From NCBI GenBank assembly GCA_018903055.1, contig JAHIPW010000145.1, forward strand, positions 1 through 6,540: a DNA stretch of 6,540 nt, read 5' to 3'. Source of the DNA: DRGV01 sp018903055 [NCBI: bacterium] (GTDB lineage Bacteria > UBP18 > UBA7526). The translations under genes and the position numbers were made by a program. The notes under the pieces were generated by a model. The model was not told the origin of the DNA, did not search any database, and saw only the letters and a list, made by a program, of their open reading frames with translations. Below are positions 117 through 6,540 of this stretch, piece by piece; positions within the stretch are counted from its first letter, which is position 1, and every line of letters begins with the position of its first letter.

Positions 117-842
117 ATGAGAAAAGAGCCACCGGAGAAGGTATCACAGGAGAAGATAACCTTTGATGTCAGGGAGCTGGAGCCGCTCTTGAGTCCACCC
201 CTAATGAAGGTGAAACCATTTGCCCCAGCCTGGGTCAGACTTAAGAATGGAGAGAATCTGCTCATCAGGCCAGCAAAGAAGAGCGAGGCGCCTCTACTCT
301 TAAATTATGTGAAGAAGATGATCGACATAGACCACGACTTCTATGATATTGTAGGAGTGAGGGTCTGCGCCGAGATCTTAGGCTGGTATAGGAACAGGCT
401 GAAGGATCCCTATCAATTCCTGGGGCTCATCAATGGTGAAATGGTGGGCTTTGTCAATGGAAGGCTCATGAATGAGGACATAAACATCAGCCTCCACACC
501 ATGGCCTTCAAGAGGGGCCTGAGGATCGGGGCGATCTTATACTATGCCAAGTGTGAATACGCATTTGAGACCCTGAAGCAGAAGGAGTTCTGGGCCACCT
601 ACGAGAGTTATAACGGCCTGAAAAGGTGGGGGATCGGCATGGCCCAGCCTTCCTATCCCTGGCCAGATTATCAGCATGAACTGGGAGGGGCAAGGGTCTT
701 TTACATGACCCAAAAATACTGGTCAACAGTAGTCAAACAGTATCTACTGGACATGATTGGCACTACCTTGAAGAGGCCGGTACCTAAGGATTTATTGAGA
801 AAGAATGTAAGGCTTAAGATTCCCAGGGAAGTAGCTATTTGA
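117..842 (+). CDS. GNAT-like N-acetyltransferase domain protein
   Basis: The 241-residue product reads as a soluble GNAT-type acyltransferase, a fold that moves an acyl group from acyl-CoA to an amine. The acceptor cannot be told. Residues 1-40 are a charged, Pro-rich leader. The fold starts at about 45 with a beta strand and the family-like phrase LLIRPAKKSEAPLL (48-61). A hydrophobic strand with LGLINGEMVGFV (102-113) follows. A Gly-containing turn, RGLRIGA (133-139), stands where GNAT proteins bind the CoA pyrophosphate, followed by a helix (140-153). The turn is not a perfect R/Q-x-x-G-x-G/A match. The C-terminal part (about 157-205) is rich in Trp and Tyr and may shape the acceptor pocket. 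There is no signal peptide or membrane segment. The last four bases overlap the next gene's start, so the two are probably translated together. I do not recognise a named family member. Confidence 0.65.
   Translation: MRKEPPEKVSQEKITFDVRELEPLLSPPLMKVKPFAPAWVRLKNGENLLIRPAKKSEAPLLLNYVKKMIDIDHDFYDIVGVRVCAEILGWYRNRLKDPYQFLGLINGEMVGFVNGRLMNEDINISLHTMAFKRGLRIGAILYYAKCEYAFETLKQKEFWATYESYNGLKRWGIGMAQPSYPWPDYQHELGGARVFYMTQKYWSTVVKQYLLDMIGTTLKRPVPKDLLRKNVRLKIPREVAI
825..831 (+). promoter_or_regulatory. Ribosome binding site for the TTG-started nuclease gene
   Basis: AGGGAAG ends 7 bases before the TTG at 839, inside the end of the GNAT gene. It supports the TTG start. The first in-frame ATG (codon 49) would remove the conserved N-terminal Cys motif. 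Confidence 0.5.
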
Positions 843-1744
843 AGAGTGAGCAAAGCGATTTTTTTAAGCATCTCTTCGGTGGAGAGAAGTCATTACCAAA
901 GTCAGAGAAGAAGATCCTGGTCTTGAGTTATTCCCAGATAAGCACTTACCAGCAATGTTCCCTTAAGTATAAGTTTCAGTATATGGAGAAAAGACCCTCC
1001 AAGCCCAGTCCCCACTTGGATTTTGGAAACACCATCCATAATACCCTGAAGGAATTTCATCAAAACTTTGATCTTAGGAAAGCAAGCCCTTTTAGAAGTA
1101 ATCCGGCCCCAAAGGGGACGGATGCCTCCGATGAATATTGGGGGACTTCTAACGGGGTGAACCTTGAAGACCTACTGGAACTCTATGAAAAGAACTGGGT
1201 GGCCGAGGGCTACGAGAGCCGGGAGCAGGAAGAAGAGTTTAGGAGAGAGGGGGAGAGGATGCTTAAGAATTATTATCAGACAGCAATAAAGAATCCTAAT
1301 CTTCCTCTTTATTTAGAAGAAAGCTTCAAGTTTCGGATAGGAGATTGCGAGATTTGGGGAAAGATCGATAGGATCGATAGGCTTCCTGATGGAGAATGGG
1401 AGATCATAGACTATAAGGCAGGTAAGAGAAGAATAAAACAGGTAGGATTAGAAGCCGACCTAAATCTTTTGGAGATTGACGAGAGCTTCCAATTATCCCT
1501 CTATTATCTGGGTTGTAAGAATAAATTTGAAAAGGTTCCAGAGAAGGTGAGCCTCTACTATCTAAAGTATAATCAGAAGATAAGTGCCGCCAGGAGACCA
1601 GAGCAGTTGAGGGACGTGGAGAGGATTGTGGATCAGGTTGCCTCCCAGATCAGGGAGAAGAAGTTTGAACCGAAGAAAGGTCCCTTATGTCCCTGGTGTA
1701 GTTATAAAGAGCTCTGTCCAGCCTTCAAGGAAGCTCTTCTATAA
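839..1744 (+). CDS. PD-(D/E)XK nuclease, RecB/Cas4-like, with probable Fe-S cluster
   Basis: This 301-residue protein belongs to the PD-(D/E)XK exonuclease superfamily (RecB/AddB C-terminal and Cas4-like), which cuts DNA ends in repair and recombination. Visible motifs, in order: SYSQISTYQQC (30-40) with Cys40; FGNTIH (62-67) with His67; KIDRID (175-180) with metal-binding Asp177; IIDYKAG (189-195) with Asp191 and catalytic Lys193; QLSLYY (218-223) with the Q-x3-Y helix; and CPWCSYKELC (284-293). Cys40 with Cys284, 287 and 293 is the four-cysteine set that holds a 4Fe-4S cluster in AddB and Cas4. All key residues are present, so it should be active. Residues 85-105 appear to be an extra segment encoded by a palindromic element. 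The TTG start overlaps the previous stop as TTGA. With no helicase or cas genes nearby, its partner and substrate are unknown. It is followed by a 102-bp spacer before polA. Confidence 0.85.
   Translation: MKSEQSDFFKHLFGGEKSLPKSEKKILVLSYSQISTYQQCSLKYKFQYMEKRPSKPSPHLDFGNTIHNTLKEFHQNFDLRKASPFRSNPAPKGTDASDEYWGTSNGVNLEDLLELYEKNWVAEGYESREQEEEFRREGERMLKNYYQTAIKNPNLPLYLEESFKFRIGDCEIWGKIDRIDRLPDGEWEIIDYKAGKRRIKQVGLEADLNLLEIDESFQLSLYYLGCKNKFEKVPEKVSLYYLKYNQKISAARRPEQLRDVERIVDQVASQIREKKFEPKKGPLCPWCSYKELCPAFKEALL
1092..1152 (+). repeat. Palindromic element inside the nuclease gene, three-way junction fold
   Basis: The 61 bases pair almost completely. The outer stem is TTAGAAGT (1092-1099) with ACTTCTAA (1145-1152). 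Inside it, arm I pairs ATCCG (1101-1105) with CGGAT (1119-1123), then after one G-A mismatch CCCC (1107-1110) with GGGG (1114-1117) around AAA. Arm II pairs CCTCCGAT (1125-1132) with ATTGGGGG (1137-1144) around GAAT, using two G-U pairs. Only two junction bases (1100, 1124) are unpaired besides loops and the mismatch. The element encodes residues 85-105, rich in Gly, Pro, Ser, Asn and Asp. This segment lies between the helix ending near LKEFHQNF and NLEDLLELYEKNW, a stretch I expect to be short in relatives. The best analogy is the Rickettsia palindromic elements, which insert in frame in genes. No target duplication is obvious. Confidence 0.65.
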
Positions 1745-4517: not shown

Positions 4518-4671
4518 GGTTACTACGCCCCGATATTATCGGGGCTGTTACTATAGGTTACTACGCTTTCCACCTCTTCGGTGGACCAGCCGAAGAGGCT
4601 GGCGCTGTTACTACCGGTTGCTTTGTAACTGATAGTAACTGTTTCGTAACCGCTAGTAACTGTTAGTAACC
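4518..4671 (+). repeat. 154-nt composite palindrome between polA and coaE
   Basis: The spacer folds on paper into one long interrupted stem. GGTTACTA (4518-4525) pairs with 4664-4671, GTTACTA (4547-4553) with 4654-4660, and GGTTAC (4556-4561) with 4646-4651. GCTGTTACTA (4604-4613) pairs with 4633-4642 with one T-T mismatch and one G-U pair. CGGTTGC (4615-4621) pairs with 4625-4631 around TTT. The left arm carries three side hairpins: GCCCCGAT/ATCGGGGC (4527-4545), CCACC/GGTGG (4570-4584) and CCAGCC/GGCTGG (4586-4602). Left-arm GTTAC units thus match five right-arm GTAAC units. A T5 run (4672-4676) follows directly, so the element might act as a terminator or attenuator before coaE. A REPIN-like mobile palindrome is the other explanation. 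It is not CRISPR: units are short, inverted and not separated by regular spacers. Confidence 0.75.
4570..4602 (+). other. Twin hairpins with complementary loops
   Basis: CCACC (4570-4574) pairs with GGTGG (4580-4584) around TCTTC, and CCAGCC (4586-4591) pairs with GGCTGG (4597-4602) around GAAGA. The loops are exact complements. Including the flanking stem bases, CCTCTTCGG (4573-4581) and CCGAAGAGG (4590-4598) are perfect reverse complements. The RNA could form two small hairpins with kissing loops or one 9-bp hairpin with an 8-nt loop. It sits as a side branch in the larger palindrome. Confidence 0.6.
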
Positions 4672-5429: not shown

Positions 5430-6540
5430 ATGGATATCGTTGTTTTGAAAGAAAAAACCATCTCTGAGCTAAGTAATGTGGCGAAAAAGATGAAGATTCC
5501 TGGGGTAGGAAACCTGAGGAAGCAGGAGCTCATCTTCAAAATATTGAAGGCCCAAACCAAAAAGGAAGGCCTTTTCTTTGGGGAAGGTGTTTTGGAAATT
5601 CTCCCCGATGGTTTTGGTTTCTTACGTTCACCCAATACCAACTATCTTCCTGGCCCAGATGACATCTATGTCTCTCCCTCTCAGATAAGGCGCTTCAGTC
5701 TCAAGAAGGGAGATATCGTCTCTGGCCAAATTCGTCCTCCCAAGGCGAGTGAAAAGTTCTTCGCTTTACTCAAGGTTGAGGCCGTAAACTTTGAAAACCC
5801 AGAACTGGCTAGGGAAAGAGTACTATTCGATAACCTCACTCCCCTATATCCCAAGGAAAGGATTGGGCTGGAGACAGGAACCGATACTATCTCAGAGAGG
5901 GTCATGGATCTCTTGACTCCCATTGGAAAAGGCCAAAGAGGCCTAATCGTTTCTCCTCCCCGGGCGGGAAAGACCATTCTATTGCAGAAAATTGCCAACT
6001 CCATCACCACCAACCATCCCGAGATAATCTTAATCATTCTCTTAGTTGGAGAAAGACCTGAGGAAGTAACAGATATGGAGCGAAGCGTAAAGGGAGAGGT
6101 CATTGCTTCTACCTTTGACGAGCCGGCCACCCGCCACGTCCAGGTGGCAGAGATGGTCCTGGAGAAGGCCAAGCGGCTTGTGGAGTATAAGAAGGATGTG
6201 GTCATTCTCCTGGACTCTGTCACCAGGTTGGCTCGGGCATATAATACCACTTGTCCCCATTCAGGAAAGGTCCTGACGGGAGGGGTGGATGCCAATGCCT
6301 TGTCCAAGCCCAAGAGGTTCTTTGGTTCTGCCCGCAACATTGAAGAGGGAGGCTCTTTAACCATTCTGGCTACTGCCTTAATCGACACCGGGAGCAAGAT
6401 GGATGAGGTAATCTTTGAGGAGTTTAAAGGTACGGGGAATATGGAGCTGGTACTCGATAGAAGGCTGGTGGATAGGAGAATATTTCCGGCCATCGATATC
6501 TCGCGAAGCGGGACGAGAAAAGAGGAACTTTTGCTAGATA
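5430..6540 (+). CDS. rho: Transcription termination factor Rho, 3' end outside the window
   Basis: Rho is the hexameric RNA-dependent ATPase and helicase that loads on nascent RNA and stops transcription. The open frame runs 370 codons to the window edge without a stop; roughly 50 residues of a standard Rho of about 420 should lie beyond. The N-terminal helical part (about 1-47) is followed by the cold-shock-like RNA-binding fold with DGFGFLRS (60-67), Phe62, Phe64 and Arg66. The ATPase core has Walker A PPRAGKT (176-182), catalytic Glu208 and Arg209, Walker B VVILLDS (257-263) with Asp262, the Q loop [11 protein letters not shown] (281-291), the R loop around FKGTGN (332-337), and Arg363 in RSGTRKEE as the expected arginine finger. 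Spacing tracks E. coli Rho with a constant offset of about three, so there is no large N-terminal insertion. Gly207 stands where E. coli has Asp210. Confidence 0.98.

What the first reader, a model, noticed from the sequence alone, without database searches (positions are those of the whole stretch)
1092..1152. Palindromic three-way-junction element inserted in frame in a nuclease gene
Every base from 1092 to 1152 fits one fold: an 8-bp outer stem (TTAGAAGT/ACTTCTAA), a 9-bp arm with one G-A mismatch, and an 8-bp arm with two G-U pairs. That is about 25 pairs in 61 nt with only two unpaired junction bases. Coding constraint does not explain this. The encoded segment (residues 85-105) is Gly/Pro/Ser/Asn/Asp-rich and separates two helical parts that I expect to be nearly adjacent in relatives. 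It does not touch the catalytic or cysteine motifs. This resembles the Rickettsia palindromic elements, known to insert in frame in protein genes, but in what is probably an unrelated bacterium. That it is mobile is inference from a single copy.
Basis: partly seen in the sequence, partly recalled or inferred. Interest (0 to 1): 0.8.

Follow-up and report, generated by a model that had tools for sequence, protein, structure and literature searches.

The report
Palindromic jumping DNA inside protein genes
A tiny folded piece of mobile DNA has landed inside a nuclease gene without breaking its reading frame, and elements with the same ends sit in genomes of many unrelated bacterial phyla, some of them also in frame inside genes.

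Summary
The fold is real and larger than reported: 1087-1157, 71 nt, a 13-bp outer stem, two hairpin arms, two unpaired junction bases. None of 5000 synonymous recodings folds as well. It is an inserted mobile element. A congener (G001) has it with an exact 4-bp target duplication, CAAG/CAAG; four same-family genomes lack it; net gain 75 nt, 25 codons. Of 57 copies curated in the source genome, 26 have exact 4-bp duplications (shuffles reach at most 13), and 18 aligned copies covary strongly. Strongly structured copies tend to length = 2 mod 3 (23 of 24 own, 32 of 42 foreign), so with the duplication the frame survives. FtsW and Fpg copies also have empty sites in relatives. The same ends bracket elements in records of about a dozen phyla, 70 of 127 with exact duplications, but in only 9 of 187 sampled genomes outside the family. 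Three transposase families were not found in the six family genomes; the mobilising enzyme is unknown. It works like Rickettsia palindromic elements but was not shown to be one: a new variant of a known kind.

The parts
1087..1157 (+). palindromic mobile element (71 nt), three-way junction, encodes PFRSNPAPKGTDASDEYWGTSNG in the gene's frame
   Evidence: fold; empty sites and congener copy; other copies; covariation
1087..1099 (+). left terminal inverted repeat (family consensus CCCCGTTAGANNT; this copy CCCTTTTAGAAGT)
1145..1157 (+). right terminal inverted repeat (ACTTCTAACGGGG, matches consensus)
1101..1123 (+). hairpin arm A (10 base positions per side with one G-A mismatch, loop AAA)
1125..1144 (+). 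hairpin arm B (8 pairs, loop GAAT)
1083..1086 (+). left copy of the 4-bp target site, CAAG
   Evidence: single CAAG in the empty sites of G003 and G004; CAAG on both sides in G001
1158..1161 (+). right copy of the target duplication, now TGAA (CAAG in G001)
839..1744 (+). host gene: PD-(D/E)XK nuclease (RecB/Cas4-like), 301 aa, read through the element

Best explanation
This is one copy of a non-autonomous palindromic transposable element (MITE-like) with 13-bp terminal inverted repeats (CCCCGTTAGA fixed, the next three bases free but complementary). Shown: the nuclease gene of two species of this genus holds it at the same site, with a 4-bp target duplication (CAAG) in one of them, and four same-family genomes lack it; 71 + 4 = 75 nt, so the protein gained 25 residues and stayed in frame; both copies have lost stem pairs. 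Shown: strongly structured copies tend to length = 2 mod 3 and differ by 3 or 6 nt in the alignment, also where no open frame was found through them, so they can enter genes without shifting the frame. Inferred: an enzyme supplied in trans, not encoded in the element, cuts with a 4-bp stagger at YNNR-like sites; the strict end sequence is its recognition site, and the free but paired positions suggest that the folded (hairpin or cruciform) form, or arm-to-arm correction, matters. Inferred: insertions persist when the interior makes them harmless (open frame, own start codon, or a replacement tRNA).
For: Empty against filled sites in the nuclease gene, FtsW and Fpg; 26 of 57 own and 70 of 127 foreign copies with exact 4-bp duplications, shuffle maxima 13 and 22 in 2000 shuffles; covariation: 93.3% of cells paired, 16 of 31 pairs changed on both sides, 0 of 500 shuffles on four of five measures; end positions 11-13 covary in own and foreign copies; length = 2 mod 3 in 23 of 24 own and 32 of 42 foreign strongly structured copies, among them 15 of 16 and 20 of 30 where no open frame was found through the copy; 53 + 50 exact TCTAACGGGG in 1.085 Mb against 0 + 1 for the reversed control.
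Against: No autonomous element with these ends was found (by eye in the capped lists), and three transposase families are not found in the six family genomes. About half of the copies lack an exact duplication, and many of these have inverted-looking flanks (TTYA..TRAA, CCTG..TGAA); SufC shows that the net gain can still be n+4 with unequal flanks, but this is one case. In the window's own copy the right flank is TGAA, not CAAG. Less structured foreign copies show little length rule (34 of 84). MoaA and RpoN copies gave no clean empty site. The mod-3 and flank counts treat copies as independent although some are related.
Confidence: 0.88

Rival explanations
1. A member of the REP/RAYT world: a palindrome moved as single-stranded DNA by a Y1 (HUH) transposase.
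For: Palindromic, short, high copy; Y1_Tnp genes in 16 of 17 foreign carrier genomes searched; 8 of 30 Y1 loci have an end-like 10-mer (up to one mismatch) in the stretch held, 4 of them an exact one; pairing of free end positions suits a folded single strand.
Against: Exact 4-bp target duplications with empty sites are not expected from IS200/IS605-type transposition (recalled). None of six genomes of the own family has a Y1_Tnp match. In none of the 30 Y1 loci do the ends enclose the gene. No GTAG tag at the ends.
Confidence: 0.1
2. A functional RNA or DNA structure (terminator, regulatory RNA, protein site) conserved for its role, not mobile.
For: Strong fold and covariation; most own copies are not in an open frame.
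Against: Target duplications, empty sites, both orientations, in-frame copies in unrelated genes; stem pairs lost in the coding copies and 5 of 5 codon changes in the element nonsynonymous; no Rfam match at this place.
Confidence: 0.03
3. Ordinary coding sequence whose fold is chance or codon bias.
For: None found.
Against: 0 of 5000 synonymous recodings; dozens of copies elsewhere.
Confidence: 0.005
4. An integron-like cassette or recombination site (GTTRRRY core, recalled), not a transposon.
For: The ends hold GTTAGA/TCTAAC and interiors vary widely, even a whole tRNA; a few tandem or clustered copies exist (L086, L089, L135, L164).
Against: Exact 4-bp duplications at varied targets, mostly scattered single insertions. 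Integrases were not searched for.
Confidence: 0.02

Closest known systems
Rickettsia palindromic elements (RPE) and the Wolbachia counterparts
   Same: Short palindromes with inverted ends inserted in frame in unrelated protein genes and also in structural RNA genes (passages of PMC2229807 and PMC10969869)
   Different: RPE are 105-146 bp with target duplication marked '?' in the table of PMC2229807 and a CGTC tag at one end (passage of PMC3733652); here Y-shaped copies of 62-74 nt in the own genome, CCCC/GGGG ends, 4-bp duplications with empty sites, and copies in about a dozen phyla
MITEs of bacteria (Correia/NEMIS, ERIC, RUP, CIR)
   Same: Non-autonomous, mostly with terminal inverted repeats and target duplication, some with open frames fused to genes (passages of PMC2229807)
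   Different: Most of those have TA at the ends (PMC2229807) and narrow host groups (recalled); here one end sequence recurs across phyla, with a three-way junction fold and codon-sized length steps
REP elements with RAYT, and TIRtrons (passages of PMC3733652)
   Same: Short palindromes, some within genes
   Different: No GTAG or CGTC tag, target duplication present, no Y1 transposase match in the family genomes
PARCELs (PMC2996958, abstract seen)
   Same: Palindromic coding repeats with punctate distribution over distant microbes
   Different: PARCELs are tandem 25-residue repeats in repeat proteins; here mostly single dispersed insertions with target duplications

Membership tests
MITE (non-autonomous transposon with TIRs) | terminal inverted repeats | tested here: met
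   the fixed 10 bp of the ends were the search criterion; positions 11-13, which were not, are also complementary in most of 57 own and 128 foreign copies
MITE (non-autonomous transposon with TIRs) | target site duplication with empty site in relatives | tested here: met
MITE (non-autonomous transposon with TIRs) | ends shared with an autonomous transposon | tested here: inconclusive
   none among end pairs 350-6000 bp apart in held loci; PF13701, PF01797 and PF01609 not found in the six family genomes, which are incomplete; other transposase families not searched
Rickettsia palindromic element | palindrome inserted in frame in protein genes | tested here: met
Rickettsia palindromic element | CGTC tag at one end (passage of PMC3733652) | tested here: not met
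   ends are CCCC...GGGG
Rickettsia palindromic element | sequence kinship with RPE families | not tested
   no RPE sequence was compared
REP / RAYT | 20-40 bp palindrome with GTAG tag (abstract and passages of PMC3733652) | tested here: not met
   71-nt three-way junction, no GTAG at the ends
REP / RAYT | RAYT (Y1_Tnp) gene in the genome | tested here: not met
   0 of 6 family genomes; the genomes are 53-93% complete
Known structured RNA (Rfam) | covariance-model match | tested here: not met
   two matches in the window, both below gathering score and elsewhere

The most novel reading that the evidence does not exclude
A single family of palindromic mobile elements, recognised by the same 10-base ends, is spread by horizontal transfer over a dozen bacterial phyla and has evolved to be harmless on landing: its arms change length by whole codons so that element + 4-bp duplication keeps frame, some copies bring their own start codon, and one carries a replacement for the tRNA it interrupts; it moves without any transposase resident in many of its hosts.
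Probability: 0.45. Interest if true: 0.88.

Novelty: new variant of a known kind. Interest (0 to 1): 0.76.

Why it matters
In-frame palindromic insertions were known from Rickettsia and Wolbachia, where the target duplication was marked '?' in the table of PMC2229807. Here filled and empty sites with 4-bp duplications show insertion directly, and the codon-step lengths point to selection for being tolerated inside genes. If the cross-phylum spread is horizontal, small mobile palindromes are a recurrent source of new protein segments, start codons and RNA-gene changes in little-studied bacteria, and are easily overlooked in annotation.

Tried and rejected
Mobiliser: IS1380-type DDE (PF13701) in 3 of 23 genomes, none of the own family; Y1_Tnp in 16 of 23, none of the own family; 8 of 30 Y1 loci hold an end-like 10-mer (4 exact), none with ends enclosing the gene; PF01609 in 6 of 19, none of the own family, no end in its 15 loci nor in the five PF13701 loci. 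Autonomous element: end pairs 350-6000 bp apart in held loci gave no transposon by eye; the best-matching pair, in L120, marks in-frame insertions of a sister sequence in two genes, and the pair in L190 encloses only an 87-aa ORF not searched further. A crude motif search for RAYT-like proteins printed nothing. Of the clusters of 1411 foreign ORFs printed (three loci or more), none looked like a transposase by eye; one of three loci looks like a LAGLIDADG endonuclease (recalled motif), not followed. Viral contigs: 4 stretches. Structure prediction of the nuclease failed (mean pLDDT 36.3) and is not used. The first alignment (A2) had wrong coordinates for the congener copy; A3 replaced it and also left out L018, whose arm B is longer. 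A3 holds the window copy, the congener copy and 16 other own copies picked by hand for a clear junction, not all 57. MoaA and RpoN gave no clean empty site; the L008 copy had no relative to compare. Literature: the two 10-base ends occur in 19 papers, none about repeats in bacterial genomes of this kind judging by titles and abstract starts; searches listed no description of this family; subscription papers and preprints are not held.

The own set was paired without regard to flanks; one search lists only the first places, so a few own copies may be missing. The 24 strongly structured own copies include four simple hairpins of 29-31 nt; by the two-hairpin criterion alone 20 of 20 own copies and 27 of 43 foreign ones are 2 mod 3.

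Full report
What was checked. The window is contig C139 of a 1,085,295-base genome in 191 contigs (85% complete, 3% contaminated by estimate). Synonymous recoding does not reproduce it, 0 of 5000. Comparison with other copies extends it to 1087-1157: a 13-bp outer stem (1087-1099 with 1145-1157), an unpaired A, arm A (1101-1123), an unpaired G, arm B (1125-1144).

Insertion shown. The host gene encodes a PD-(D/E)XK nuclease (Pfam PDDEXK_1 7.4e-37, Cas4 3.5e-9). Among 60 genomes searched, own included, those of the same family gave the closest homologs. The congener G001 (88% identity) has the segment; G002, G003, G004 and G005 lack exactly 25 codons there. In G001 the element is flanked by CAAG on both sides; G003 and G004 have a single CAAG at the empty site. 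So the element is 71 bp and duplicated 4 bp, 75 in all. In the window's own copy the right flank is TGAA. Between own and G001 all five changed codons in the element are nonsynonymous, against 30 nonsynonymous and 36 synonymous in the other 277 codons, and stem pairs are being lost: the copy looks like a tolerated, decaying passenger. More distant homologs were not aligned at this place.

A family in the genome. A search with the element found 47 matches in the genome, many of them short. The end sequence TCTAACGGGG occurs 53 + 50 times on the two strands, its reversed control 0 + 1. Pairing ends in the 55 own-genome loci fetched gave 57 copies. Of these 26 have an exact 4-bp duplication outside the ends; shuffling right flanks gives 4.7 on average and at most 13 in 2000. 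All 26 own targets and 69 of the 70 foreign ones fit YNNR. Two more genes give clean evidence: FtsW, 74 nt in the own genome (flanks TAAG/TAAA) and 68 nt in G001 (TGAG/TGAG), empty in G003, G004 and G005; and Fpg, 119 nt with TTTA/TTTA, empty in G001, G002 and G003. SufC has unequal flanks but a net gain of 72 = 68 + 4 over the empty sites of G002, G003 and G004. MoaA and RpoN were not clean.

Structure under constraint. An alignment of 18 copies (17 own, one from G001) scored with the three-way junction has 93.3% of cells paired, 16 of 31 pairs with changes on both sides and a covariation score of 0.353 against 0.134 for shuffles; 0 of 500 shuffles reach the observed value on four of five measures (82 of 500 on the fifth, further pair types), and sliding the partner by one column drops pairing to about 50%. 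Among 57 own and 128 foreign copies, end positions 11-13 are free in sequence but paired (own 53/57, 44/57, 39/53; foreign 124/128, 111/128, 98/128; all above the shuffle maxima), while position 14 is at chance.

Length rule. Copies differ by gaps of 3 or 6 nt in the alignment. Strongly structured copies (at most -0.45 kcal/nt, up to 90 nt) are 2 mod 3 in 23 of 24 own and 32 of 42 foreign cases; less structured foreign copies in 34 of 84. The rule holds where no open frame was found through the copy: 15 of 16 own, 20 of 30 foreign. With a 4-bp duplication such a length preserves frame. Stop-free frames of at least 150 nt on both sides run through 13 of 55 own and 18 of 115 foreign copies with enough flank; the commonest encoded peptide reads PVR...SNG, another frame PLE...LTG. 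Hosts include FtsW and an ABC ATPase of SufC type, and by my reading of the sequences MoaA, RpoN and Fpg (names recalled).

Other ways of being harmless. Eleven of 185 copies contain an ATG in frame with one end and an open frame of at least 60 codons beyond, eight of them with exact duplications; some of the proteins that follow look like response regulator, TsaD and RpiB starts (names recalled). In the own genome and G001 a complete tRNA-Val(CAC) lies inside the anticodon-loop region of an outer tRNA gene, bracketed by CCCC...GGGG ends. In G005 a plain tRNA-Val(CAC) stands upstream of the gene that follows the outer tRNA in G001. The simplest reading is that the element interrupted tRNA-Val and carries its replacement. 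The flanks there are unequal (TTCA/CAAG), and G001's ends differ beyond CCCCG, so this is a lead.

Spread. Foreign copies have exact duplications in 70 of 127 (shuffle maximum 22). The 32 foreign genomes tested, chosen because they carry a copy, hold 6-219 copies of the 10-mer. Outside such a choice the element is patchy: 15 of 193 genomes, being 6 of 6 of the family and 9 of 187 others, reversed control zero. One own copy and one Elusimicrobia copy agree at 43 of 45 interior positions; shuffled interiors reach 0.65 at most. This suggests recent transfer between phyla, but the Elusimicrobia record is a metagenome bin and the own copy sits on a 3-kb contig, so contamination is possible.

How it moves. 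Not shown. The 4-bp duplications imply staggered double-strand integration. IS1380-type (PF13701), Y1 (PF01797) and DDE_Tnp_1 (PF01609) transposases were not found in the six family genomes, which are 53-93% complete. No longer element with these ends was found in held loci or, by eye, in the capped lists. I favour trans-mobilisation by an enzyme outside these three families or missing from these assemblies. About half the copies lack an exact duplication; many have inverted-looking flanks, which could be decay, arm-to-arm correction or a second mode of insertion.

Placement. It works like Rickettsia palindromic elements: in-frame palindromes in protein and RNA genes (passages of PMC2229807 and PMC10969869). 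It fails the one RPE mark tested (CGTC tag, passage of PMC3733652), and sequence kinship was not tested. It meets the MITE definition except for a known autonomous partner. Papers seen: passages of PMC10969869, PMC3733652, PMC2229807 and PMC9769881, abstract of PMC2996958, otherwise listings. Searches for the family in print listed none in the held library.

Noticed in passing
L023/L269 (own), L272 (G001), L271 (G002), L270 (G005): tRNA-Val(CAC) nested in the anticodon-loop region of an outer tRNA gene, bracketed by element ends; the own outer tRNA also holds a 62-nt element in its D-loop region; G002 keeps part of the outer tRNA; plain tRNA-Val in G005
   Followed up: partly
L138, L157, L170 (two), L175, L185, L187, L100, L120, L027, L073: Copies that supply an ATG in frame with one end, giving proteins new starts such as MAKQQDTSNGV
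   Followed up: partly
L089 (two), L125 (two), L140, L164: Six copies abut type IV prepilin-like motifs so that the element end encodes the LTG before FTLIE, FTLVE or FTMVE
   Followed up: no
L120 near 2547 and 4135: A sister sequence with ends CCCCGTTAAATCCGGC lies in frame in two neighbouring genes of a Parcubacterium (NPVKSGKAGAEQFNGVN, NPVKSGSAGAKQFNGVN)
   Followed up: no
many loci, e.g. L015, L022, L026, L030, L178: Copies without target duplication with inverted-looking flanks (TTCA..CAGG, CCTG..TGAA); several own ones share longer flanks, as if inserted in another repeat
   Followed up: partly
L013, L016, L061, L072, L075, L084 and others: AT-rich interiors of about 95-111 nt with the same ends form separate subfamilies in the own genome
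   Followed up: no
L097, L170, L177: One of the small clusters of ORFs shared between carrier loci looks like a LAGLIDADG endonuclease (motif recalled)
   Followed up: no
window 4530-4670: Several GTTACTA/TAGTAAC-type repeats lie between the polA-like and coaE-like genes (seen; gene names by reading)
   Followed up: no
window 6235-6295: The only other scanned 61-nt stretch of the window that folds as strongly, inside the rho-like gene (gene name by reading)
   Followed up: no
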